In this document: positions 1,017 to 17,085 of the stretch, one piece after another | Layout: every line of letters begins with the position of its first letter | How positions within the stretch are numbered: position 1 is the first letter of the stretch | NCBI GenBank assembly: GCA_002284615.2 | Contig: MU069900.1 | Location: 214,654-234,400, forward strand | Reading direction: 5' to 3' | Source: Dunaliella salina | Taxonomy: Eukaryota; Chlorophyta; Chlorophyceae; Chlamydomonadales; Dunaliellaceae | DNA length: 19,747 bases | Notes under the pieces: model-generated | Database searches by the model: none | What the model was told of the DNA's origin: nothing | What the model saw: only the letters and a program-made list of their open reading frames with translations | Translations under genes and position numbers: made by a program

Positions 1017-1217
1017 TAGGGATCGGCGTTGGCATATAGCGCTATATAGCATATAGCGCTATATAGCATTATATCGCGCTATATAATTTTGGGATATAGC
1101 GCTATATGCCGATCTATAGGTCGTTATAGCGCTATATGTTAAAAAAGCGCTATATTGCTATATATCGCTATATAGCGCAATAGGTTTGGCCCATATAGCG
1201 CTATATGCCGATCCCTA
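1017..1217. mobile_element. hAT-like miniature element (MITE), 201 bp, palindromic
   Basis: The element begins TAGGGATCGGC and ends with its exact reverse complement, an 11-bp terminal inverted repeat. It is flanked by a perfect 8-bp duplication, TTTGTGAT, at 1009-1016 and 1218-1225. An 8-bp duplication with TAGGG/CAGGG-type ends is the signature of the hAT superfamily. There is no coding capacity, so this is a non-autonomous MITE. The interior is built from the self-complementary motif ATAGCGCTAT, perfect five times and degenerate at least three more, so either strand can fold extensively. The left arm carries a small GTTGGC insertion relative to the right arm. The perfect target duplication suggests a fairly recent insertion. 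Confidence 0.88.
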
Positions 1218-1225
1218 TTTGTGAT

Positions 1226-2030
1226 GTGTTGTATGCTCGCACATTTCGAGGTAACAATCAAGCTGGTTGAAAGCATGAACTGCTTGTAAGTGCCCATGTG
1301 CCCTCGATCCCTTTTACCTCAACGTGTGTTGCTGATCCCTCTGTCTTTCATTTGTCATGATAAATCGCACGTGCACACACATCGTGAGCTCACGTCTCAA
1401 GCAGTGGCACTGGGTTGCAGGTGCCTCTGAGGCTGCTTTCAACCGTGTGCGGGACGCTGTGCGCATCCCCATGTACGGTATGTGCTGGTGCTGTTTGCAT
1501 GGTGCATGCTGTGCAATAATCATCCAAACCTTTGAATGTGAGCATGCTTAAATGTCTGAAGCACAAGCGTGCATGTATTGTAAATCGTGCTTGCCTGAAA
1601 GTTTGATGTGTGAGTATGACATACTCGGTTGGCATCGCTGCTTGCACTCTTTCTTAGTGCCTTCAAATGACATAAGTTGGGATGTGACCACTCTTGCGCT
1701 GATGTCTTCCTTGGCTAAATTTGTGTCTGCATGCCTGAAATGCCATGACTGAACCCCAAGTGTTGCCTTCCAGCTCAGACTGGTTTGGTTACAGGCATTT
1801 GCTTCAGCTAAGCTACCCCCGCAGGCAGATGTAGTTGTGTGACCCTTTTCTTTCCTTTCCTTTCTCGGCGTCTCTGGTCGATCCAGCTCTCGAAGCGACT
1901 CCATCTTTATGTCGACACTGTCGATGCTGCTTTTTGCCATTAGTGCAACTTATCTCTGCTATTCATCACCTGCTTGCTTGCAACACTGCTTTTCTCTCAG
2001 CATAAAATCATGTGCATCACAAAATTTCTC
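1226..2030. other. No recognisable gene
   Basis: Open frames up to 130 codons exist on the minus strand (1548-1940), but their composition is unremarkable and no domain is recognisable. A pyrimidine-rich run of CTTTC/CTTTC type lies near 1844-1865. No inverted or tandem repeat of note was found. Confidence 0.45.
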
Positions 2031-2945
2031 CAAGCAGTAGAACCATGTGGTGCATGATGTGGTTCAGCAAGCAATTAAATCATGTAGTGCACCATATGGT
2101 GCATCATGTGGAGCAGCAAGCAACTGACTCATGTGGTGCACTACGTTGTGCAGCAAGCAATTGAACCATGTGGTGCATCATGTGGTGCAGCAAGCAAATG
2201 AAACGTGCGCCTGGGTGCATCATGGCAGTTGGATCATATGGTGCATTGTGTGGTGCATCATGTGGTGCAACACAGCAATTCAATCGTGTGGTGCATCACA
2301 TTATGCAGCAAGCAACTGATTCATGTGGTGCATTACGTCGTGCAGCAAGCAATTGAACCATGTGGCGCATCATTTCGTGCATCATGTGGTGCAGCAAGCG
2401 GCTTTTTCATGTGGTGCATGATTTGGTGCATTAATTGGTGCAACACAGCAATTGAATCACGAGGTTCATCATGGGAAGCAGCAAGCAAGTGACTCATGTG
2501 GTGCATCATTTTGTGCATCATGTGTGCAATACAGCAATTTAACCATGCGGTGTATCATGTGGAGCTTCATGTGGTGTTTCATGTGGTGCAGCAAGCACTT
2601 GACCCTTGTGGTGCAGCAAGCATTTGAATCATGTGGTGCATCATGTAATACAGGGATGGGTCATATGCAGGTCTGGGAGGAGCCGTGTGTGTTCAAAAAA
2701 CACGTGAAACACGCGCATGTTGCATGCAAACGTGCTGCATGCGATAGGCATTTTAGGCAATTTTTGCATTTGCATCTGCAGCATACACGCTTAAGCGTCA
2801 GCTTTCTTGTTACGGTAAAAAAAATACGTCTTTGCGTATGACCCATCCCTGTTGTGGTGCATCACGCAGTGCAACACAGCAATTGAATCATGGTGTGCAT
2901 CATGTGGAGCAGCAAGCCACTGAATCATGTGTGGTTCAAGCTGTG
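2031..2945. repeat. Minisatellite-like array built on CATGTGGTGCA
   Basis: Short units combine the core CATGTGGTGCA (often doubled as CATCATGTGGTGCA) with the spacer AGCAAGCAA and a variable TTGAATC-type link. The composite period is roughly 35-45 bp and copies are diverged. The array is split by the miniature element at 2651-2851 and resumes after it to about 2945. Several overlapping plus-strand open frames (Cys-Gly-Ala-Ser-rich) are by-products of the repeat and are not annotated as genes. Confidence 0.85.
2651..2851. mobile_element. hAT-like miniature element (MITE), 201 bp, inside the minisatellite
   Basis: The left end CAGGGATGGGTCATATGCA matches the reverse complement of the right end at 18 of 19 positions. 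CAGGGATG ends are typical of Ac-like hAT elements. The element interrupts the tandem array: array sequence is present up to 2650 and resumes at 2852. The flanking octamers, ATGTAATA on the left and TTGTGGTG on the right, no longer match. Both derive by few changes from ATGTGGTG, the array motif expected at that place (three G-to-A on the left, one A-to-T on the right). There is no coding capacity. The interior is rich in GCATGC/CACGTG-like short palindromes. Confidence 0.82.
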
Positions 2946-3024
2946 ACTGCTTCATGCTTTGAGTCCGTGATCTTATGTTCACCATGCTATTCACCAAACC
3001 ATGCACTTTCAGGGTGCGACTGCT

Positions 3025-3919
3025 ATGCATATGGGCTTCTAGCTGCCGGGCACACAGACATCGTATGTGAGGCTGATCTGAAGCCATATGACTACATGGC
3101 CTTAGTTCCTATCATCAAGGTGCGCCAGGGAGGACACATAAATATGTGGGTAGGATGCATACGGGCTGCTGCCGCGCACACAGGCATCCTGTGTGAAGCT
3201 GATCTGAAGCTGTATGACTACATGGCCTTGGTTCCTATCATCAAGGTGCGTCAACAGGGGCAAGGGCACAGAGGGAAACAAATAACATGAGAGCAGAATG
3301 CGTGCAGGCCGCTGCCTCACACGCAGACATCGTTTGTGAGGCTGGTTTGAAGCGACACTACTACATGGCCTTGGTTCCTATCAGCAAGGTGCGCCAAGGA
3401 GGAAAGCATGAATGTGTGAGTAGGATGCGTATGGGCTGCTGCCATGCACACAGACATCCTGTGTGAGGCTGATGCTGCATGATTGTATGGCCTTGGTTTG
3501 TATCATCAAGGTGCACCAACAGCGGCAAGGGCACAGAGGGAGACAAAAAAAAGTGCGAGGAGGATGCGTATGGGCTGCTGCCATGCACACAGACATCCTG
3601 TGTGAGGCTGACCTGGAGCTGCATGACAGTATCATCAAGGTGCGCCAAAGAGGAAAACGTAAATGTGTAAGTAGAATGCATACGGGCTGCTGCCGTGCAC
3701 GCATCCTGTGTGAGGCTGTTTTGAAGCTGCATGACAGTGTGGCCTTGGTTCCTACCATCAAGGTGCGCCAACAGGGGCAAGAGTAAAGAGGGAAACAGAA
3801 AAAAAAAAGTGTGAGTAGGATGTGTACAGGCTGCTGGCGCGCACACAGGTATGGTATGTGAGGCTGATTTGAAGCTGTGACTGTACGGACCTTCTTTCCA
3901 TCATCAAGGTGCGTCAAAG
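3025..3919. repeat. Tandem array, seven units of about 112-144 bp
   Basis: Each unit holds, in order, GGGCTGCTGCC, CACACAGACATCCTGTGTGA, GGCTGATCTGAAGCTG, GACTACATGGCCTTGGTTCC and ATCATCAAGGTGCGCCAA. A variable purine-rich link follows, such as CAGGGGCAAGGGCACAGAGG. The CACACAG landmarks fall at 3051, 3177, 3318, 3447, 3586, 3698 and 3842, giving spacings of 126, 141, 129, 139, 112 and 144 bp. Length varies mainly in the link. The open frames reading through the array, up to 195 codons on the minus strand, have no recognisable domain and follow the repeat. Confidence 0.88.
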
Positions 3920-4092: not shown

Positions 4093-5790
4093 CACTGGCT
4101 GGCAGGTTTATGATGTCACTGGGTAGGTAGAGCTGCTTCGTCGAAAGTAGGCAAGAATCGTCCTGTCACTCTGAAGTAAACTCTTTTTGGCACTGGTTTG
4201 TGTTGTCACTGGAATGGCAAGGTCGTGCCGCTGGTAGGCAGGTTTATGATGTCACTGGGTAGGCAGATCTATGATGTCACTGGGTAGGTAGGGCTGCTTC
4301 GTCGAAAGTAAGCAAGTACCGTCCTGTCACTCTGAAGTAAATATCCTTTTTGGCACTGGCTCGTGCTGTCTCTGGTATCCTTTTTGGCACTGGCTCGTGT
4401 TGTCTCTGGTATCCTTTTTGGCACTGGCTTGTGTTGTCTCTGGTATGGCAAGGTCGTGCCGCTGGTAGGCAGATTTATGATGTCACTGGGTGGGCAGGGC
4501 TGATGCATCGCAAGTGGGCAAGTATTCACTGGTTTGTGTAGCCACACTGGCATGGCAAGGTCGTGTCGCTGGTCGGCAGGTTTATGATGTCACTGGGTTG
4601 GCAGGGCTGCTTTGACGCAAGTGGGCAAGTAGGCAGGTTTGTCCTGTCACTCTGAAGTAAATATCCTTTTTGGCACTGGCTTGTGTTGTCTCTGGTATGG
4701 CAAGGTCGTGCCGCTGGTTGGCAGGTTTATGATGCCACTGGGTAGGCAGGGATGATGCATCGCAAGTTGGCAAGTAGGCAGGTTTGTCCTGTCATTCTGA
4801 AGTAAATATCCTTTTTGGCACTGGTTTGTGTTGTCACCGGTGTGGCAAGGTCGTGCCGCTGGTTGGCAGGTTTATGATGCCACTGGGTAGGCAGGGCTGC
4901 CGCATCGCAAGTAGGCAAGTAGGCTGGTTTGTCCTGTCACTCAGCAAACTCTTTTTAGCACTGGGTTGTGTTGGCACTGGTGTGGCAAGGTCGTGCCGCT
5001 GGTAGGCAGATTTATGATGTCACTGGGTAGGCAGGGATGATGCATCGCAAGTAGGCAAGTATTCACTGATTTGTGTAGCCAAACTGGTATGGCAAGGTCG
5101 TGTCGCTGGTTGGCAGGTTTATGATGTCACTGGGTTGGCAGGGCCGCTTTGACGCAAGTAGGCAAGTAGACTGGTTCGTTCTGTAACTCTGAAGTAAATT
5201 CTTTTTGGCACTAGTTTGTGTGGCCACAATGGTGTGGCAAGATCGTGTTGCTGTCAGGCAGGTTTATGGTGTCACTGGGTAAACATGGCGGCATGTACGC
5301 ATGTTCGTCCTGTCACTCTAATGCAAATTCTTTTTGTCACTGGTTTGTGTTGTCACTGAAGTGGCAAGATCTAGTTGTTGGTATGCAGGTTTATGGTGTC
5401 ACTTTAGGCAGGGCTGCTTCGTCGCAAGTAGGCACACCTGCCTAAAGGCAGGTTCATCTTGTCACTCAGAGACAACTCTGCGCACTCACTGGTTTGCGTA
5501 GTCACTGGTACAGCAGGATCATGTGTCTGGGTTGGCGGGTGAGCATTTTCACTTGTATGGCAGGATCTTGTCACCGGTAAGCAGGTGGGTTCTATTCTGG
5601 CTTGTGATAGGCAAGAAAAGGCAATAAGGACAGGTCACACGTACCACTCGCCTCCAAGAACCTCAGTCCTACAGCTACTCATAGAACTGAGTGGTTTTGA
5701 CACTGTTAGGCAGGTCTGCTTCTTTGCAAGGCAAGATCACATCGCTGGTATACCAGGCGAGTTTCATCACTGGTGGAGAGGTCTGTGCTA
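4093..5790. repeat. Tandem array, about 145-bp unit, 11 or more copies
   Basis: The unit contains GGCAGGTTTATGATGTCACT, GGGTAGGCAGGGCTGCTTCG, CGCAAGTAGGCAAGTAGGC, GGTTTGTCCTGTCACTCTGA, CTTTTTGGCACTGGTTTGTG and TGGCAAGGTCGTGCCGCTGG. The GGCAGGTTTATGA landmark recurs near 4101, 4237, 4262, 4468, 4575, 4720, 4865, 5005, 5112, 5257 and 5384, with a degenerate copy near 5534. The commonest spacing is 140-145 bp, and 107-bp units are internal deletions. Degenerate traces continue to about 5790, which explains the 118-codon open frame at 5585-5941. Confidence 0.88.
4343..4444. repeat. Nested 34-bp triplication
   Basis: Three consecutive 34-bp copies (4343-4376, 4377-4410, 4411-4444) begin ATCCTTTTTGGCACTGGCT and end TGTCTCTGGT, with only a few differences. 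The segment is present once in neighbouring 145-bp units. This is therefore a local secondary expansion inside one unit of the larger array. Confidence 0.92.
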
Positions 5791-7139: not shown

Positions 7140-8013
7140 GTAATGTTTGTCCCATGATTGCTCACAAAGTGCGGGCAGCTGCACCACGGACTGGCCGGGT
7201 GGAGCCTTGAGTCGATAGCCTTGCCCTGGAAACGTTTTTTCCGACATTTGTAATTCCTGTCCCATGATTGCTCCCAGGGTGCAGGTGGCTGCATCACAGA
7301 CTGGGCAGGTGGAGCCTTGAGTCGATAGCCTTGCCTTGGAAACGTTTTTTAACATTTGTAATTCCTATTTCATGATTCCTCCCAGGTGCGGGTGGCTGCA
7401 TCACAGACTGGGCAGGTGGAGCCTTGAGTCGATAGCCTTGCCTTGGAAACGTTTTTTAACATTTGTAATTCCTGTTTCATGATTCCTCCCAGGTGCGGGT
7501 GGCTGCATCACAGGCTAGGCAGGTGGAGCCTTGAGTCGGTAGCCTTGCCCTGGAAATGTTTTTCTGACATTTGTAATTCCTGCCCCATGATTGCTCCCAG
7601 GGTGCGGGTGGCTGCATCACGGACTGGGCAGGTGGAGCCTTGAGTCGATAGCCTTGCCCTGGAAATGTTTCTCCGACATGTGTAATTCCTGTTTCATGAT
7701 TGCTCCCAGGTTGCGGGTGGCTGCACCACGGACTGGGCAGGTGGAGCCTTGAGTCGATAGCCTTGCCCTGGAAATGTTTTTCCGACATGTGTAATTTCTG
7801 TTTCATGATTGCTCCCAGGTTGCGGGTGGCTGCAGCACAGATGGGGCAGGTGGGGCCCAGAGTTGGTGGCCCAATCATGGAGACACGGCCCAGGTTGTTT
7901 TGTTTTCCCATCATATGACTTTTTGTCCCATGATTGATCCCAGGGTGCGGGTGGCTGCATCACGGACTGGGCAGGTGGGGCCCTGAGTTGGCGGCCCAAC
8001 CCTGGAGACACAG
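7140..8013. repeat. Tandem array, eight units of about 108 bp
   Basis: The unit contains TTGTAATTCCTGTCCCATGA, TTGCTCCCAGGGTGCGGGTG, GCTGCATCACGGACTGGGCA, GGTGGAGCCTTGAGTCGATA and GCCTTGCCCTGGAAATGTTT. The TAATTCC landmark falls at about 7251, 7359, 7466, 7574, 7683 and 7792, a spacing of 107-109 bp. Diverged first and last units lie near 7143 and 7919. Because most units are 108 bp, a multiple of three, long minus-strand open frames (7477-7914, 7694-8206) appear. They have no recognisable domain and are read as repeat artefacts. Confidence 0.92.
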
Positions 8014-8756
8014 ACCTTGTTAGCAATTGGCCTACTGAGGTGCTGGCCACCGGGGATGCGCGCACGCACAAGGAGGCCCTTAGACTGCTGCAGGGCTGAA
8101 GCGAGCATGTCTGATCAGGAATCAGCTGTTGCCAAGTGTGGATCCAGATGGCTTGCAGGAGTGAGGCTTCTATGCTCTCTAATTGTGCACTGCAGAGCTG
8201 GAGCACGGCTGCAAGGCGGACTTAGATGAATGTCTAGACCCTTGTGCATGCTGGCACGCTTGTTAACACTTGAGCAAGCGAGCTCATAATGCGTTCCAGC
8301 TGACAATTTGATGGCTGTGAGGTGCTGCGTGTGTATTTTTCATCTAACATTGCCCTCACTTTTTCCCTATACTTTGCTGCTGCACCTAAATCACTTGAAT
8401 AAATCTGAAAACGGACCCATGGTGGAGCACAGACCACTTTTAAAAGCTGTTGCATTTTGAGGCTGGACTGAATAATCCGAGGGACTCCCTCAAAGGAGAG
8501 AAACCACTTGAAAGCTGGCTCTCCAAAGTTTACCATGATTGTTTGCTTTCCATAGTTGCTGTGGAAGGGAAACGAGGAGGAAAAGCAGCAGCGGTTTGCT
8601 TTGACCAAGCAAACAGACTTTCGTGAATCCGGCAGCTTGTTGGCCACCTATCTGGGTAAGGTAAGTGTACATTACTGAATACGCCACAGCGGATATGTTA
8701 GTGGAATCGAGCTCCCAACCTACAGGAAGGCTAGGGCTGCCTGTTTAGGCATGCAA
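8014..8756. other. No confident gene; contains one exon-like segment
   Basis: This stretch lies between the 108-bp array and the tail of copy A. On the plus strand, 8556-8660 looks like an internal exon: it is preceded by a pyrimidine-rich acceptor (TTTGCTTTCCATAG), followed by a strong donor (AAG/GTAAGT), and is open for 35 codons. On the minus strand 8234-8647 is open for 137 codons. The two readings overlap and neither has a recognisable domain, so no gene is called. Confidence 0.35.
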
Positions 8757-8803
8757 AAAATGAAAAGTAAAAGTCTACGCTGGCACTTGCCAGCGTCCAT
8801 TAA
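8754..8803 (-). other. 3'-terminal hairpin and T-rich tail of copy A
   Basis: ACGCTGGCA (8777-8785) and TGCCAGCGT (8788-8796) form a perfect 9-bp stem with a 2-nt loop. On the coding strand it is followed by TAGAC and a T-rich run, and preceded by CTTTCCTTAATG. The same order (TTTCC-TTAATG, pairing segment, GCGTAG, TTTTC units) ends copy B, and a variant of it ends C and D. It is therefore probably the RNA 3' end recognised at insertion. Confidence 0.65.
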
Positions 8804-10355
8804 GGAAAGACTCAACAGTTAGCACTGGCACTGCACTGTGGCACTGTGGCACGTGCCAGTGCACTAACAGTGAGCCCCACCAAAGAAGGCTAGCTGTGAG
8901 CAACCCAGCTAATGAGGGTCCGGTGGGTCACCGGCCATTTGTCCGGCTGCGCGCCTCGCTGTCCTGTATGCAGCCCTCTCTGTAGGCCCCTCCCCCAAAC
9001 CCCCATTGTTTATGTTGCTGAATTGGATGGCATTTTTGATGTTGTGTTTTTTTGTTAGGGACTTTACAGCATGAAAGTGGAGTTCTTTGGCAGTTTTGTG
9101 AGCTTTGTCTTCGGTTAGGCCAAATTTGCAAAGGGGATCAATAATGTAGGGATTGAAGATAGTTCCAGAAACCCCAATTAGTATGGTATGTAGTGTGTCT
9201 CTGTCATTGCGATGTGCGTCCCAAAGAGATCTTGTGCATAAGCTTTCAATGGTGTGTTTGTGCTGATCTTGTGCAGTGTGGAGAGTTTATTCGGGTCTGG
9301 TGTCAAAACAAAATTTGAGCACAGTGAGGTGGATATCTCTGTCTTTAAGATTCATGCCCTGCGGGTGATGTGTGGAGTCTCTGCCTTCAAGGGGTAAACT
9401 GTAATGCCATCATGGCGACTGAGCTGTGTGGATGGTGGTTGTCTGGATGGAGGCAGCCAATGTGGAATGTGTCGGCGTACAGTATCTGGAATTTCCATAT
9501 GGAAATATGCATATCCAGTGAGCGTTGCCTCTTGGCATTGCATGCATCTATAGAGATAATGTGAGATTTAAAGTCTCCTTTGTTTATTGCTTCACCGCAG
9601 ATGCTGAGTGCTTGATGGTGGCGATCGATGTTCATTCTGTTTATTTGTGGGTGGGTGCATCTGAGTAGGTTATGGGAGGTGCTATCAGGTGTACCACAAA
9701 GAGGGCAAAGAGAAGGCCAGGGTAGCCACTGAAGCGTCTGGCATGTTTGCCATTGTACAGGGTGTCCATTCGATATTTGAGGACATCGGTTTGTTCTTTG
9801 GGGGTCACAGCCTTCATGTGCCCAAAAGCATCACTAACTTTTGAATTGGCAGTGGGGTGAGCATTGGACATTCTGAGCAGGTTCTGCCAATTTTGGTAGC
9901 TATGTGTGCAGAGGTTTGCTGTTCCCAATTTGTGTTTTCATGCAATACTTGTTTCAGTTTGTCCTGGAGGTTTGAAAGGGGCAAGTATTCTGCGTAAGAG
10001 CTATGTGTTGTGACAGATGCAGCAAGCCAATAGAGATGAAAGAAAGGAGTTTCTGCCTGGTTGAGGGAGGTGTTAGCTTTGTCAGGTAGCATAATTGCTT
10101 GATGAGCAAGGGCATCTGCGCCTTCATTACCAAATATGCCACTGTGTGATTTCACTTTGTAGAAGTGGGCAGGGCCCTCTGAAGCATTTATGCAGGCTAC
10201 AATTTCTTTGAGCAGCACTGGTGAGCACCAGGGGTGTGTTTTAGTGCGTGGACATATCCATGGGTTTTAGAAGTCTGTTTTTAATCTGATTAAGTGCTGA
10301 GGAACTGTCAGTTGCAATTGAAATGTGCCCTTGCTGTAGAGCTATCAAAATTGCC

Positions 10356-10403
10356 GTTAGGTGTCGCCAGCCTGGGATTGTTAGGTGCCGTCAGCCTGGG
10401 ATC
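10356..10403. repeat. 24-bp tandem duplication within copy A RNase H region
   Basis: Two adjacent 24-bp copies each consist of GTTAGGTG, a short variable part and CAGCCTGGGATY. They lie just upstream, in coding direction, of the ILIALQQ segment. The YTDGS region is not recognisable beyond them, so the duplication belongs to the decay of this copy. Confidence 0.85.
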
Positions 10404-11672
10404 TTTTGTTGCAGGGGTTGCAGGTATGGTTATATGTTAGGTGTGATGGTTCTTTGTTGGCTGCAGACTTTGAAAACGTTGTGCGTGTCAAGATACAAAG
10501 GTGCAAATGTTTTTCCCCTTGTGCAGGTTTCTTTGAAACAGAGGGTAATGTTTTGATATTCTGCAATCTGTTGACTGCTTCTTCGGTACCAGTTTCCTCC
10601 ATGGATATCTTGTTTTAAATCCTTAAGCCAATTTGGGTTATTTTGGAAGAGCTTTTGCTTTCCCTCATTGTTCCAAATGGCAAGAAGTTGCATGTTTCTC
10701 ATATGTTTTTAAGGAGGAGTAAGAGGAGTTAGGTAGGCTTGGCCAAGGGGTAGCTGGAATGTTAGACTTCCTGAGGGGAATTAGGTTGGGATTGTGGCAT
10801 GGTCTGGGTTACATGAGAACCTGCGCATGTATCTTTCTTTGATCCATCCCATCTGGCTGGGGAGGAGCATGAAGGCGGTCGTTGGGGTAGTTGTGCTAGT
10901 GATCGAAGACAAGGCATGCATGACATGGTAGTGGATGAATTCGTCATCATAGGCAGGGTGGCAAAAGGAGAACCCCGTAAACTTGGTTCCAGTGTTGGCC
11001 CCAAAAAAATTGTCTCGTGCAAAAGGGCTCCAGTATGCTTTGAAGTGTGTGTCATAATCAAGGGGGCTCGCAAGTTTTTCTTGGGTAACTAGCGCACAGC
11101 GTGTGAGAGCTGCGAGAATGTCAATTGGTGTGCACAGAGAATTGGATTCTTTATTATTTTGGTTGCCTTTTCCAAGGTGAGAAGTGTACATGTGTAGAAG
11201 GCCCATAAATCCTGTTGCTTCATGTTGAACAGGGGGCTGAATTGAGGAGTGTAGACCAGCTTGCCTGGCTGCACTGTATGCTTGGAGCAAAATTTGAAGA
11301 TGGTGAGGGGTGATAATGCCTGCGCATTTCCATTTGGTGTCATGAATGCATGCAGCTTGAGTGGTGAATGCAAGAGGGATTTTGGTTGTTCATCAGAATC
11401 CTTGTTGGATCCCGGTATGAGATCCACATTTCTCAGCCAACTTTCACATCTATTTGTTGGTATGATGTCTGTCTGGGGATTAGTAGTCTCGAGGTCAAAG
11501 CGTGCCTTGTTGCGCATGGGGTGGCCCCGGTTCGTGAGCCAGTGCCTGTATGGAGGCTGTGTGGCTCCCTCAAAACCTTGATGAGTGAGGTGTCTACAGT
11601 GTCGTCAGCAGGTGGTGAGTGTTGTTGTGGAGAAGAAAAGTTGTCTGCGTGAGATTGCTCGAACCTGTGGAC

Positions 11673-11705
11673 ATGCTCCTTGAAACCTGGATGTTCAAGG
11701 AGCAT
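11673..11705. repeat. Perfect 12-bp inverted repeat, 9-nt loop
   Basis: ATGCTCCTTGAA (11673-11684) and TTCAAGGAGCAT (11694-11705) are exact reverse complements around a 9-base loop. The hairpin lies inside the chromodomain-like coding part of copy A, where it encodes MLLEHPGFKEH. It may be chance imposed by the codons. Confidence 0.85.
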
Positions 11706-12039
11706 AGAAGTTGGTTCCCAAGTGGGCTGCCAGGTGACTTTGACCATTTCTGTATCTTCTGCTGTCTTGGTATGCTGTCTTTTTTAGACATGCACCTCAC
11801 TTTCTTGTGAAATGATGCCAGTTGTTCCTTCCTCCAGACGTGGGAAGGAATGAATGCTGTTGTGGATGTAAAACGTTCCTGGTAGCACTTGGCCTTGTAA
11901 AAGAAAAGAAAAGTCTACGCAAGCCAAAGGCCGCGTGCATTAAGGGAAAGTCCTCTAACTGGAAAGCTGGAGGCCTCCCCAGAAGGCCCTCAGAACCTAG
12001 ACTAGACACAGCTAGCCTAGGAGAGAGCCAGAAATAGAC

Positions 12040-13823
12040 CTAACGGTGATCAGGAGGGTTGCTCGCCATGCCTCCGGACGGCCGGACTCTCCTTCTCCCA
12101 TCCTCCGCCGCCGCGCGCCCAGCAAACCCCCTCCCAGAAACCCCCTGAGAGCAAAGAGCGTGTCTAGTGTTTTTGATAGTGATTAATCTTTGGATGGCAT
12201 GGTCCCTAAGCTTGGCTGCTAGTGATTTGGCTTTTTCTTTAGTAAGACTAAGATGTATGAGGGTGTAATTGTATACTCATTGTAAATGGTACAAGCCACA
12301 CCACTTAAGATGATGTGCAAGGTCACTTTGCTGATCCTGTTTGGATTTCTTGAGCTGCGGGTTTCAAGTTAGGTTATGGTGTGAGAACGTTGGGTCACTG
12401 CACGCTATAGGGTGATGGAGGGGTTTTTGTCGGGACAGAATTTTAGTTCAAAAAGAAGTACGTCCCTGTCTTGAGGTGGGATCTTGGAAGGATCAAGGTG
12501 AGTTTGTCTGCCTGGAAGAGGGCGCACAAAGATAGCATCAGGGCTGGTTTGGTGCCAGGCAGGGGAGCTAGTACCATTAGGGAAAATCCAGTCTGGAGTA
12601 GCTTTTGATATGTTTCCAGGGACTTGTATGCCCTGATCCAGGAGTCTCTCGTTATTGCAGCCATCCATACCAGCAAGGGATGAGCCATATTGACCTTTAC
12701 TGGGGGCTTTCACACAAAGACTTAGGGCTGCATTGTGTCCGTTGATGTGCATCCCGCTCATTGTTGAGTTTGTACACCTGAGGAGTATGTGGTCAATGTG
12801 GTCCATATCATCATATAGTGGGCATCCTCCAGAATTGGAAAAGTTGAATTTGAAAGCATGACTCTGATTGTACAGTGTACCTGTACGATACTTTATTATA
12901 CTTATTTGCTGTCTAGGGTAATTCCTGGATTTTTTCCTGAAGGAATTGCTGGTCTCTTTGTTTGCAAGTTGAGAGGTTGGGTTGCGAGATCCAGTATTTG
13001 CAATGGTAGTTGGTGGTAAGGCATCATTAAGTTTCTGCTATCTCTGGTAGTGGTAGCCAGAGGTGTCAGCAGAGCCGAGCTTGTGTTTTAGGTGCATGTA
13101 TTTAAGTTTGTCGTTCAGATTGGTAAGGTAGTGCATTGGGAAAGCGTGGGAGCGGTGGATGCTATCATCACGTGATGAAGAGGTCTTCAATGGAAGGCAG
13201 TAAAAATTGTGGAATGGGTCCCTGGCATCTGGAAATGCAATGTCCATGGTGTCTGGGAGGGCTGCGGTGCGAGCGCAAGCATCAACCCCCTCATTTCCTA
13301 TAATGCCAGAGTGGGCTTTCATTTCGTAGAAATGGATAGGGTGAGGGGAGTGTTTTAATATGGTTGATATTGCATGTATGAGCTCCGCATGTAGGTGATA
13401 CCTCATGCGCATCAGATTGAGGGTTTGTTTAGAAACCTGTAAGAGGCAGGATGCACTATCATTGGCAATTTGAGTTTGCTCGTGTTGGAGTGCCACAAGG
13501 ATACCCACAAGTTCTGCTCTGGTGATGGTTTTGGTGGGCCCATGGCCATTGGGTTTTATGTGCAGTTGTAAATGTTGAGAGGGTTGAGTTGTGTCCCTTC
13601 CCAGTTTGTAAACACCTGAATCAGAGAGTGGTGGGGAGTCGTCATCACTGTGTTTAATTACACTGCCATCAGTGTAGGTGACTTCCCTCCAGTCCTTGAC
13701 TTTAGGAGTGAACATCTTTATGTAATTGGCAGGGGTGAAGGCTGCCCTTCCCTGTGGGCAATTGTATGAACAGTTATGGATGTCATGGGGAAGTGATTTG
13801 AACTTTTGCTTAGGGGGCCCGGG
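12040..13823 (-). pseudogene. Copy B C-terminal half: RNase H, zinc knuckle, PD...ELK nuclease-like
   Basis: One frame is open from 13823 to 12405 apart from a TAG at 13038-13040. RNase H type 1 (from 13690) has all four acidic residues in place: YTDGS (D16 counted from the Met at 13715), TRAEL (E68), NDSAS (D86) and NEGVDACA (D145), plus KAHSG with the histidine. KYRTGTLYNQSHA follows, then a knuckle CPLY-H-C (from 12824) whose second cysteine is tyrosine. TPDWIFP, SPDAIFVRP (12542 down) and DRDVLLFELKFC (ELK at 12449-12441) resemble a PD-(D/E)XK nuclease core. Stops at 12405 and about 12370 precede TLHIILSGVACTIYN. A frameshift near 12250 leads to KEKAKSLAAKLRDHAIQ and the C-terminus ASNPPDHR-stop. 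It is the best preserved RNase H of the window but cannot make the full protein. Confidence 0.72.
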
Positions 13824-13868
13824 CTATCTGAGGCCCAAAGTCAGGTGTTTTTTGCACGCTCCTTGCGT

Positions 13869-13963
13869 ATGTTCTCCGTAACTGGTAATGTTCAAGGTTA
13901 ACTCCTATAGGTACAGGTTACCTCTAGGCCTATAGCATAAGGATTACCAATCACGGAGAACAT
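13869..13963. mobile_element. 95-bp hairpin MITE-like element
   Basis: The ends are 21-bp inverted repeats, ATGTTCTCCGTAACTGGTAAT and the reverse complement of ATTACCAATCACGGAGAACAT, matching at 19 of 21 positions. The interior also partly pairs (CTATAGGTA with TACCTCTAG; CCTATAG). No convincing target duplication flanks it, so the superfamily cannot be assigned. It lies in the gap between the two halves of copy B. Confidence 0.6.
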
Positions 13964-14206
13964 GCCAAATCAGCCATGGCATGAGCCCTAGTTTTTGGCA
14001 CCAAATCCCATCTGACCACCCACTACACCAAATTGAGTGATTAAAAGTGATTTGGAGTCCTTGTATCAGAACAAATCATTGCAAAAAAATGGAGTGAAAA
14101 GACCCAATGGTTGGTGTTTTATGGTGATTTGAGCCATTTCCCATATACAGCACCGGACTAGGGTTTAGTGCCCCAGGTGCTAGCACGAAGCGCTTCTGCT
14201 TTGTCT

Positions 14207-14318
14207 TGGTGAAGCGGATACACGGTGCCTCGGCCCTAGGTATCCTCTTTTCCTTAATTGATGTGGGGAGTGTTTTCACTGCCTGCGTAGCTTTTCTTTT
14301 CTTTTCTTTTCTTTTCTC
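14207..14318 (+). mobile_element. Fragment D: 3' end of a related element, plus strand
   Basis: From TGGTGAAG at 14207 the sequence matches the 3' UTR of copy C (from 16991), with roughly nine in ten bases identical by eye. The match runs through GGCCCTAGGTATCCTCTTTT and GTGGGGAGTGTTTTCACTGC to the TTTTC tail. The tail here has five TTTTC units (14291-14316), the longest in the window. Sequence to the left shows no coding match to the family, so this is a strongly 5'-truncated insertion. It is inserted opposite to copy B. Confidence 0.7.
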
Positions 14319-14390
14319 TCCAGGTGAGCTTTAGCACAATTTATCTATACACAAGGCAACGTACACAAATCTGAGCATATGCATGGGTAG

Positions 14391-15419
14391 CTAATAAAGC
14401 CAGCTTAAGTTTACAGCCAGATTTGTCCAAACCTGATGGAGTGGCTGTGAGTTACTGGCAGGATTTGGAGGATTCAAGGGCAGCCAACAGGATGGTACAT
14501 GTTTCTGGAGGAGTTGGAACCAGTCTTTGTTCGCGCTATCTAGCATTACTCTAGCATTAGGATTCCACACAGCGATAAGTTGCATAGGATAAGGTGGAGT
14601 GGGACTGGGCATGGTATCAAACCAGTATTGTGGTGCCTGAAATTGGATGTTTCTTGCCGGGAATCTGGCAAGCACTTTTGCAAAATCTGGGTACTGGCTA
14701 AGCCAACTCATATGTGCGTTACAGCCGAAGCCTCTCCAATGGGGCAGGAGCATGAAGGTGACAACTGGATCTGTGGTTTGGAGGGATGAGAGCACTGCGT
14801 GGCGCAGGATTTTAAACATTATTTTGTCCTCATGTGGGGGATGGCAGAAGAAAAAGCCAGTGCAGCGCACAGAGAGGGCGTCTGTGTGCGCTCCAAAGAC
14901 CTGGTCTTGGCAGTTTGTGCTGAAGTAGGTGTCGTAGGTCTCGCCAAATTCAAGGGGGTTGGAGAATCTATCTGTTGAGACCATGCACCATTTATGCAGG
15001 GCTAATCGGATGTGGAGAGTTGTGATCAGCGCGTTGGAAGTGTGGAGCTTTTTGCTCTTGGCTGAAAGATTTTGTTGTTGAGCCTTTTGTCAAGAGAGCA
15101 GTCCCGTAATTTCAGTTGCTGAATCCTGGACAGGTGGTTGAATGGTGGCATGGATGCCTGCACTTTTAGCTGCTTCATAGGCTTCAAACAGGGACACGAG
15201 CCTGTTTACAGTGAGCATGCCATCGCACTTGCCATTGGCATTGGAGGTACAGGCGCACTTGGTGGTAACCACCTCCAACATTCGTGCTGGCATGGCGACC
15301 CCATCAGATGTGTCAGGGTGAAAAGGTTCCTTCAAGAGATCAACACTTATAATGATAATGTTGCCATGTTGACATGATACCTGTCTGGAGGTTGATAGGT
15401 TGGAAGTCAGTGCCAGCAA
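14391..15419 (-). pseudogene. PCIF1-like methyltransferase-like half (copy B, or inverted part of C)
   Basis: One frame is open across 15419-14391 except for a single TGA near 15090. Conserved blocks shared with copy A are NGKCDGMLTVNRL, LFEAYEAAKSAGIHATIQPP (A: LLQAYSAARQAGLHSSIQPP), QVFGAHTDA, FFFCHPPHEDKIM (from about 14850), TFMLLPHWRG and MQLIAVWNPN. The arrangement (FG motif, Pro-Pro motif after a hydrophobic strand, then a hydrophobic strand ending in LPxW) resembles the adenine N6-methyltransferase fold of the PCIF1 family. The catalytic NPPF-type motif is CHPP here and CHPA in copy A, so activity is doubtful. The frame stops at 14391 without reaching RNase H. Assignment to PCIF1 is by pattern only. 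Confidence 0.55.
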
Positions 15420-17085
15420 TGCCCCATTTATGTCAATTTAAATGGAGCAGGAATCACCAACAACATCACAAAGGCTGAGTTGGCTGCAATAGCAGCTGCA
15501 ATCCTCCACGGCTACTCTTGCATTGCCACCAATAGCCTTGACTTCTACAACAGCAGAAAACAAACACTATATCCAGGGCTGCACCGCCAGCATGTTCAAA
15601 GGTATATCCTCAAGATATTAATACTGCTTGTGCGCAGCTCACCTACACCAATTAACTAATAATTGAAGGTTAAGTCTCATGTTGGAATTGCCGGAAACAA
15701 TTGTGCCAATACCATTGTCAAGCATCACGCCATCCATGATGATGGAAAACTGGCAGACATGACATTACCTTGTGTAAACCTTGAGGGCAATCCTTTTCAG
15801 AAAGAAAATTCAAGGAAAATGACCACACCCGCGCATATACATCAGGACGTACAAACTCACCTGCCTTAAAGCTAAAATACTTCTCCAACCTTCATGATCC
15901 TTGGAGGACGCACATGCATTCAAAACATGGAGCTTGGAAAGGCCAATACTGAGACAGGGTACTACTCTTTCTATCAAATTTCTACTTCCCACTGTCAATA
16001 AAAAGGTCAATAATGCCTTCTGGAACCTACCAACACGTCCTTTTAAAATGAAATGAAACACCTTTAACAACCACACAAGCACCCTCTTTAACAGATGCAT
16101 GCAGTATGCTTAAAAATTTCCACCTGCCTACAATGCCCCCTGCGTGGAGAACCTGACAGTGCCCTTCATATTCTATCAGGATGAAATACTCCACCATGTC
16201 CAACATGGTAACAGAGTGCCACAACATTGCCAGCAGGATCCTCCTCAAAGGTATCAGCAAAGACCCTCTCGGGGCAGGCCTTGCCTCCATGGATATTGGC
16301 AAAGCAGATCCACTTGCTTTATAGGACCTCCATATTCCTCAGAAAATAGACCCTCTCTAATTTATAAACACGTTTCCCTTCGTCATTTACCAGACAAAGA
16401 AATGCTCACTTCTAACCGCTTCGATGTAATATTAGTTGTTCCCATGAAAGAAGTGCCAAGGACCAATGCCCGGTATCAACTGAGGAGTGTAGGGGGGTGC
16501 GGAGGGAACATTGAGCACTCAGCGCCAGCCACAGCCACTCCTCCTACTTCCAAGGTCATCCTAGTCAGCTCCTGCCAGAACAGATGCGCATTCATCTTGT
16601 GGTAGTCAGATACTGTGAGCACACCCAGCCCTTCAGCTTGAGGCCTCCACGCAGCAGCACCGCGATTTGTGTTGCCACCTTAAAAGGGCTTCTGCTCAAG
16701 TCACCCTTCAGTAAATTCTGTTAGGTACACCGGTTTGGGTGGAGACATCTACACTCCCCACACTTTGGAGCCACTTAAAGAGCTTGGTCTTGACGCTCAC
16801 AAGCCAAGAAGCTTGCCCTGGAGCTTCATGCTGATCCTTTCCAGACATGCTTTCAAACTTGTCAGTCCTAGACGAAGTCTGGAGAAGACTTCTTTCAGCT
16901 CTAGTTGATGAGGTCTCATCAACAAAGTCAGGCGCAGGCTACTGGCAGTAACCCTCCAGATCCCCATTGACTTCTTTTCTCATTCTCTCGTGGTGAAGGG
17001 GATGCATGGTGCCTTGGCCCTAGGTATCCTCTTTTCCTTCTTTGACGTGGGGAGTGTTTTCACTGCTTGGGTAGTTTTCTTTTCT
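15420..17085 (+). mobile_element. Copy C, 5'-truncated, plus strand
   Basis: It starts abruptly in the middle of RNase H at about 15423 and runs to a T-rich tail at 17075-17085. A 3' UTR of about 105 bp shared with fragment D (GGCCCTAGGTATCCTCTTTT, GGGGAGTGTTTTCACTGC) precedes the tail. Its 5' breakpoint abuts the 5' end of the minus-strand methyltransferase-like half exactly. It is more decayed than copies A and B. Confidence 0.7.
15423..16970 (+). pseudogene. Copy C protein: RNase H to C-terminus, heavily disrupted
   Basis: One frame encodes TKAELAAIAAAILHG, CIATNSL and, after a double stop TAA TAA at about 15655-15660, KVKSHVGIAGNNCANTI. These are RNase H blocks in which two catalytic aspartates read as asparagine (IATN, CANT). 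A knuckle remnant, CPLRGEPDSALHILSG, begins at 16134 and meets TGA where the last cysteine is expected. MVTECHNIASRILLKGISKD (from about 16201) follows in another frame. The nuclease-like strand is RIHLVVVRYCEHTQP (about 16585-16630), with valine and arginine where copy B has E and K. The end is TGSNPPDPH with TGA at 16968-16970. It cannot encode a working protein. Confidence 0.7.

What the first reader, a model, noticed from the sequence alone, without database searches (positions are those of the whole stretch)
8757..17085. Element family encoding a methyltransferase-like domain fused to RNase H, zinc knuckle and a PD...ELK nuclease-like region, without a visible reverse transcriptase
Three copies and a fragment share the same protein order. 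In copy A the methyltransferase-like part (MQLLAIWNN block at about 10690) leads into RNase H sequence by about 10350 with no room for a reverse transcriptase. The C-terminal order RNase H, CPLC-H-C knuckle, PD...ExK recalls restriction-like LINE endonucleases and LINE clades with RNase H (for example the Dualen type). The methyltransferase-like fusion and the missing RT are not explained by that model. Either an RT lies further 5' in full-length copies, or these are RT-less passengers mobilised in trans.
Basis: partly seen in the sequence, partly recalled or inferred. Interest (0 to 1): 0.8.

Follow-up and report, generated by a model that had tools for sequence, protein, structure and literature searches.

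The report
Retrotransposon with a cap-methyltransferase-like domain
These repeats are shortened, broken copies of a green-algal LINE retrotransposon whose fuller copies do encode a reverse transcriptase, together with a domain that has the fold of the mRNA-cap methyltransferase PCIF1 but not its catalytic motif.

The parts
8755..11898 (-). Copy A: 5'-truncated, frame-broken LINE copy (about 47% identical to L040 at its C-terminus, less elsewhere), from a chromodomain-like stretch to the 3' tail
   Evidence: tblastn with L040, L004 and L005 proteins; 3' end GCGTAGACTTTT
10781..11389 (-). Copy A PCIF1-like domain (motif HPAY in place of NPPF)
   Evidence: PF12237 E 1.1e-7, over cut-off; alignment
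9940..10266 (-). Copy A RNase H, C-terminal part
   Evidence: PF00075 E 0.0012, below cut-off; tblastn to RNase H of L040
8912..9830 (-). Copy A zinc knuckle (CPLC..H..C), nuclease region remnants and C-terminus in DPPDPH form
11899..15409 (-). Copy B: 5'-truncated copy of the main subfamily, interrupted by an insert
   Evidence: 68-71% identity to L040 in three blocks, residues 211-518, 532-1057 and 1042-1129; tail GCGTAGACTTTTCTTTTCTTTT; 5' limit
14391..15409 (-). Copy B PCIF1-like region (motif HPPH); the Pfam match itself is in 14391-15089
   Evidence: PF12237 E 3.4e-8, over cut-off; own-genome relatives
13815..14453 (.). Insert in copy B; its 14195-14321 part is a plus-strand 3' end of the second subfamily with a (TTTTC)n tail
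13038..13823 (-). Copy B RNase H (YTDGS, RAEL, NDSA, GNEGVDA present)
   Evidence: PF00075 E 9.6e-8; motifs
12405..13037 (-). Copy B degenerate zinc knuckle (CPLY..H..C by eye) and restriction-like nuclease PD...ELK
   Evidence: motif PDAIF...ELK; the knuckle pattern that I tried gave no match; family profile aligns to knuckle and RLE of R2, i-E 6.3e-5
15411..17085 (+). Copy C: second-subfamily fragment on the opposite strand, RNase H to 3' end, with NPPDPH stop and a TTTTC tail

Best explanation
The window holds dead, 5'-truncated copies of a non-LTR retrotransposon family with Dualen-type architecture in a green alga. The coding order, read from fuller copies and relatives, is Josephin-like cysteine protease, APE endonuclease, RT, PHD-like zinc cluster, PCIF1-type methyltransferase core, RNase H, zinc knuckle, restriction-like endonuclease, and then a conserved 3' end with a (TTTTC)n tail. 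It moves, by established LINE biology, through target-primed reverse transcription: an endonuclease nicks the target, RT copies the element RNA from its 3' end, copies often stop early (5' truncation), RNase H removes the template RNA, and short target-site duplications result. The architecture, tails, truncation and a few duplications are shown; the assignment of each nuclease to a step is inferred. The PCIF1-like domain is most likely non-catalytic: it keeps the fold but not the NPPF motif. I infer that it binds RNA or an RNA/DNA hybrid within the element's own ribonucleoprotein.
Against: No copy that I read is an unbroken full-length open frame, so the whole protein is inferred from overlapping pieces and from relatives of 1.6-1.9 kaa that lack the N-terminal part. 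Of four upstream stretches fetched only L047 showed RT and APE in place: L044 had none of this RT, L045 had a related RT on the other strand, L046 was partly unreadable. The Josephin and PHD matches in this genome are below the curated cut-offs. Two of 10 relatives keep Asn in the first motif position (P0066 NPEY, P0056 NVPA), and His in the local family is itself conserved, which could mean changed rather than lost catalysis. No binding or activity data exist. The cap-binding helical domain of PCIF1 is not covered by the structural match (PCIF1 417-658 only), which argues against simple cap recognition. In the profile search PCIF1 was not among the 60 rows shown of 188, which RT and RNase H chains fill.
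Confidence: 0.62

Rival explanations
1. The PCIF1-like domain is an active methyltransferase with a non-canonical motif (H-P-x-[HY]) that methylates the element's RNA or new cDNA, for example to stabilise the RNA or mark the new copy.
For: Low dN/dS of the core, as in RNase H. Fold closest to PCIF1 and then to adenine and RNA methyltransferases. HPPH or HPIY in 31 of 36 rows of two subfamilies and HPPH in relatives at 57-63% identity (P0003, P0004, P0006). Precedent: retrotransposon cytosine methyltransferases that methylate DNA (PMC5890265, abstract and passages).
Against: The catalytic loop is not conserved across the wider family: FPDH, LLPH, VPDF, NVPA, HPGP, HPAA, NPEY, HPEH, LPPY, and one without such a motif, in 10 relatives. 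NPPF mutants of PCIF1 lose activity (PMC6318281 and PMC10544176, passages).
Confidence: 0.2
2. RT-less passenger elements mobilised in trans by another LINE.
For: The window copies themselves contain no RT. One locus (C223) has APE and PCIF1-like hits only 1.0 kb apart, as an internally deleted derivative would (not followed up).
Against: RT upstream on the same strand in L039 (part), L040, L041, L047, L050 and L051, and in single open frames of relatives. A repeat read as a target-site duplication bounds an RT-containing unit.
Confidence: 0.03
3. The methyltransferase resemblance is only a generic Rossmann-fold similarity or chance.
For: Single-sequence searches are weak: Pfam E around 1e-7 for the window pieces, no PDB hit in that region by single-sequence phmmer, and no hit in the first protein search.
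Confidence: 0.02

Closest known systems
Dualen/RandI group of non-LTR retrotransposons (Chlamydomonas; in PMC4640811 and PMC8226300, passages; original description recalled, not held)
   Same: Both APE and RLE, RT, RNase H; green-algal host; pyrimidine-rich tails ((CTTT)n listed with RandI-2 for a Chlamydomonas SINE, PMC3747384 passage); a cysteine protease is recalled for Dualen
   Different: A PCIF1-like domain and PHD-like cluster between RT and RNase H, which I did not see described in the passages read; not checked against Dualen reference sequences (none available here)
PCIF1/CAPAM, cap-specific adenosine N6-methyltransferase
   Same: Methyltransferase-core fold over residues 417-658, SPL and FG(A/S) motifs
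   Different: NPPF replaced; no WW domain found; helical (cap-binding) domain not matched; embedded in a LINE protein
SymbioLINE-Dnmt, SymbioDIRS-Dnmt3, KnitGypsy-Dnmt3 and DIRS with Dam-like methylases (PMC5890265, abstract and passages)
   Same: Retrotransposons that carry a methyltransferase-type domain; purifying selection reported for the DNMT ones
   Different: Cytosine or Dam-type enzymes in other positions of the element; retrotransposon DNMTs were shown to methylate. Here a PCIF1-type core without its motif
R2 retrotransposon protein
   Same: Closest solved RT (E 6.3e-48) and a matching zinc knuckle plus RLE at the C-terminus
   Different: R2 has no APE, RNase H, PHD or PCIF1-like domain (recalled); no fixed target site seen here

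Membership tests
Dualen/RandI LINE group | Encodes an APE endonuclease | tested here: met
   PF03372 E 2.3e-7 (L047) and 7.8e-8 (L050), over cut-off
Dualen/RandI LINE group | Encodes a restriction-like endonuclease at the C-terminus | tested here: met
   Profile aligns with R2 knuckle and RLE, i-E 6.3e-5 (9nl3) and 0.027 (9nl2); PD...E[VIL][KG] in 8 of 10 relatives by a pattern that allowed Lys or Gly, Gly in 4 of the 8; ELK in window B
Dualen/RandI LINE group | RT and RNase H in the same element | tested here: met
Dualen/RandI LINE group | Cysteine protease (recalled feature) | tested here: inconclusive
   Josephin E 3.2e-4, below cut-off, in L050; 1.7e-11 in the Haematococcus relative P0078 with APE and RT
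Dualen/RandI LINE group | RT branches between RLE-only and APE-only LINEs | not tested
   No reference RT set at hand; only the R2 and L1 scores
PCIF1/CAPAM enzymes | PCIF1 methyltransferase-core fold | tested here: met
PCIF1/CAPAM enzymes | NPPF catalytic motif | tested here: not met
   H first in 33 of 36 rows in this genome, N in none; NPPF in 0 of 10 relatives, Asn in its place in 2
PCIF1/CAPAM enzymes | WW domain binding phosphorylated CTD | tested here: not met
   No WW match in the Pfam scans of 6, 5, 5 and 6 proteins
PCIF1/CAPAM enzymes | Helical domain that reads the m7G cap | tested here: inconclusive
   Structural match starts at PCIF1 residue 417; most of the upstream part of the model is low confidence
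PCIF1/CAPAM enzymes | Cap-adjacent N6 methylation activity | not testable with these tools
   Needs biochemistry

The most novel reading that the evidence does not exclude
A PCIF1-type methyltransferase core is an ancestral, standing component of the whole Dualen/RandI LINE lineage that has gone unrecognised. Freed of catalysis, it serves the element as a reader of its own mRNA (cap-proximal or terminal adenosine region, or the RNA/cDNA hybrid), coupling template choice to the RT, RNase H and RLE that flank it in the same polypeptide.
Probability: 0.3. Interest if true: 0.75.

Novelty: new variant of a known kind. Interest (0 to 1): 0.6.

Why it matters
A relative of the cap m6Am writer sits between RT and RNase H in all ten listed relatives that carry both and keeps a low dN/dS although its catalytic motif is gone. 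That makes a testable case for how a LINE recognises its own RNA. It also warns that PCIF1_WW matches in algal genomes can be transposon pieces: of the 150 scored in this genome none stands out as a cellular PCIF1 gene.

Tried and rejected
RT-less passenger model: rejected for the family. Host guess Cymbomonas: rejected, assembly sizes and scaffold numbers do not fit. The repeat 14204-14299/16988-17083 was first taken for a SINE and then recognised as the 3' end of the second subfamily. Viral contigs: 138 pattern matches, no relative. First protein search with a single sequence: none of 1125 candidates; the alignment search found 52. First structure model: mean pLDDT 47, too weak although PCIF1 already ranked first; the diverse alignment gave 74. 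L050 17-nt repeat not counted as a duplication because it is the element's own sequence; repeats of 8-9 nt (6 rows) taken as chance; no formal control was run for the duplications. A canonical host PCIF1 gene was looked for with PF12237: the 150 scored hits (of 881 candidates) have 36-47 bits and none stands out; I did not inspect each, and an intron-split gene is not excluded. RNase H dN/dS of L040 against L039 (0.34) covers 98 codons near a frame break and is less reliable than L040 against L041 (0.12); PHD plus linker of L040 against L041 is higher, 0.50 over 80 codons. Josephin and PCIF1_WW literature look-ups: nothing relevant in the three papers searched for terms. RT copy count in the genome: not completed.
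Full report
What was checked. The window is G000:C465:214654-234400 of an unnamed 285-Mb assembly. The host is a green-lineage alga. A CP26-type antenna exon matches PDB chain 7pi0_S best (E 1.6e-75, against 1.4e-63 for the next). For an LHCII exon, long repeat-bearing chains of 9vfj rank first, then 7pi0_G (2.5e-46) ahead of 9is4 and 6kac. That 7pi0 is Dunaliella photosystem II is recalled, not from a call. So the genome is probably Dunaliella or a near relative; this is not proven.

The observation. Copies A and B on the minus strand carry a PCIF1-like part, RNase H, a zinc knuckle, a PD...ELK stretch (degenerate in A) and a C-terminus close to NPPDPH. Copy C is on the plus strand, resembles a second subfamily and starts at RNase H. 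The fragment is a 3' end of that subfamily inside B. B ends in GCGTAGACTTTTCTTTTCTTTT and A follows directly, head to tail.

Where the RT is. The PCIF1-like piece of B has 150 scored hits out of 4602 first-look candidates, one of them itself. Reading around better copies shows RT upstream on the same strand in L039 (part), L040 and L041, in L047 and in L050 and L051. The RT of L040 matches PF00078 at E 1.2e-20. Of the four upstream stretches fetched only L047 showed this; L044 had none of this RT, L045 had a related RT on the other strand, and L046 was partly unreadable. L042 and L043, fetched above L041 and L040, showed no APE among the open frames listed; the L041 copy is truncated there. 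L050 and L051 were chosen because APE and PCIF1-like hits lay together. Upstream of the RT lies an APE endonuclease and, in L050, a Josephin-like protease stretch (E 3.2e-4, below the curated cut-off). A second stretch in the same copy looks Josephin-like by eye but has no such Pfam match. Of the 150 hits, 12 have an APE hit on the same strand 4.5 to 5.4 kb upstream (contigs 1115, 182, 210, 154, 78, 389, 102, 438, 1085, 813, 196, 21); three more pairs lie 1.0, 8.3 and 9.3 kb apart (C223, C165, C774). I paired the two lists by hand; both are capped (APE: 140 matches from 134 scored of 570 candidates).

One mobile unit. Of 27 tail rows examined (L038 and L039 are one copy), five have an upstream repeat of 10 nt or more that I read as a target-site duplication: L004 11 bp, L016 10 bp, L022 12 bp, L041 12 bp and L044 19 bp. 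The one in L041 bounds a 6721-nt copy that runs from before the RT to the 3' tail; the others bound 79 to 762 nt. RT and the PCIF1-like part therefore moved together at least there. A sixth, in L050, was set aside as the element's own sequence. The remaining rows have no such repeat; for many the 5' end may lie outside the fetched locus.

Relatives. A profile of PHD to RLE found 52 proteins: 36 labelled Pelagomonas calceolata in EukProt, one labelled MMETSP1126, the others from jgi, ena, lgn or MMETSP sources without an organism name. A profile from RT to RLE found 131 (120 listed). Among them are six single open frames of 1628-1927 aa with PF12237, PF00078 and PF00075 (P0053, P0055, P0063, P0066, P0067, P0069) and four Haematococcus records (P0056, P0075, P0078, P0165). 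All ten listed relatives with RT and RNase H were scanned: eight match PF12237 between the two (E 1e-13 to 1.3e-3, four of the eight over the curated cut-off), P0056 and P0079 do not. A domain HMM built from nine family sequences, six of them among these ten, finds the domain in all ten; the four not used in training score P0054 8e-54, P0056 2e-29, P0058 5e-60, P0079 9e-19. None of 1032 shuffled or reversed controls scored. PHD fingers match at 1e-4 and 3e-4 in P0055 and P0054, below the cut-off.

The motif. In fetched loci a pattern that leaves the motif letters free gave 42 rows; I set aside six that are plainly not this domain. Of the 36 left, H is first in 33, and R, P, Q are first in one each. 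Copies whose flanking letters differ, such as window copy A (HPAY), escape the pattern. In ten relatives the four letters are FPDH, LLPH, VPDF, NVPA, HPGP, HPAA, NPEY, HPEH, LPPY, and one without such a motif. What is better kept is RF.SPL, Y.S, D..FGA and A..S. Disrupting NPPF lowers PCIF1 activity (PMC6318281 passages; PMC10544176 passages).

Selection. Between the long open frames of L040 and L041 dN/dS is 0.22 for the PCIF1-like core, 0.12 for RNase H, 0.20 for the knuckle region, 0.31 for the nuclease and 0.50 for the PHD and linker (80 codons); between L040 and L039 the core is 0.17. These are pairwise estimates from few copies.

How it works. Shown: architecture, 3' tails, 5' truncation, a few duplications, low dN/dS. 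From established LINE biology: target-primed reverse transcription. Inferred: which endonuclease cuts which strand, a protease role in processing, and the RNA-binding role of the PCIF1-like core.

Filing. Both APE and RLE in one element is how PMC4640811 (passages) describes Dualen; RNase H is listed there for Dualen/RandI too. Dualen elements were found in all species compared in PMC8226300 (passages). RT phylogeny was not done, and the original Dualen paper could not be read. I therefore call it Dualen-type. It is not filed as a PCIF1 enzyme, because the catalytic motif test failed.

Print search. I saw no paper joining PCIF1 with a LINE in searches (listings), which cover only open-licence PMC papers. 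Known relatives in kind are DNMT-bearing LINE, DIRS and Gypsy elements (PMC5890265, abstract and passages).

Noticed in passing
window 2011-2655, 3015-3919, 4101-5413, 7144-8021: Four dense arrays of diverged direct repeats with common spacings of about 37, 126-143, 107-145 and 107-110 nt.
   Followed up: no
window 1052-1213: TATAGCGCTATA-type repeat block, two copies of 63 nt, 76% alike.
   Followed up: no
L016, L018, L022, L050 and window 11899/11898: Several element tails are followed directly by the coding sequence of another copy of the same family, so the family can insert into itself; in the window B abuts A head to tail.
   Followed up: partly
G000 contig 223, about 341571-343953: APE and PCIF1-like hits only 1.0 kb apart on the same strand, too little room for the RT: possibly an internally deleted derivative.
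   Followed up: no
P0068, P0072, P0076, P0077: Relatives of this LINE RT sit in records labelled as bacterial MAGs (Spirochaetia, Agrobacterium, bacterium), probably eukaryotic contamination of bins.
   Followed up: no
P0056: Haematococcus gene model that runs from the Dualen-type RT, RNase H and nuclease into a Tf2-1-like SH3 and chromodomain, perhaps two transposons merged into one gene model.
   Followed up: no
36 of the 52 proteins P0001-P0052: They carry the EukProt label Pelagomonas calceolata, a pelagophyte by recall, at 37-81% identity; cross-contamination or true presence was not resolved.
   Followed up: no
relatives P0063, P0066, P0067, P0079: The nuclease motif has EVG or ELG where four others have E[VI]K, a change of the expected catalytic lysine.
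   Followed up: no
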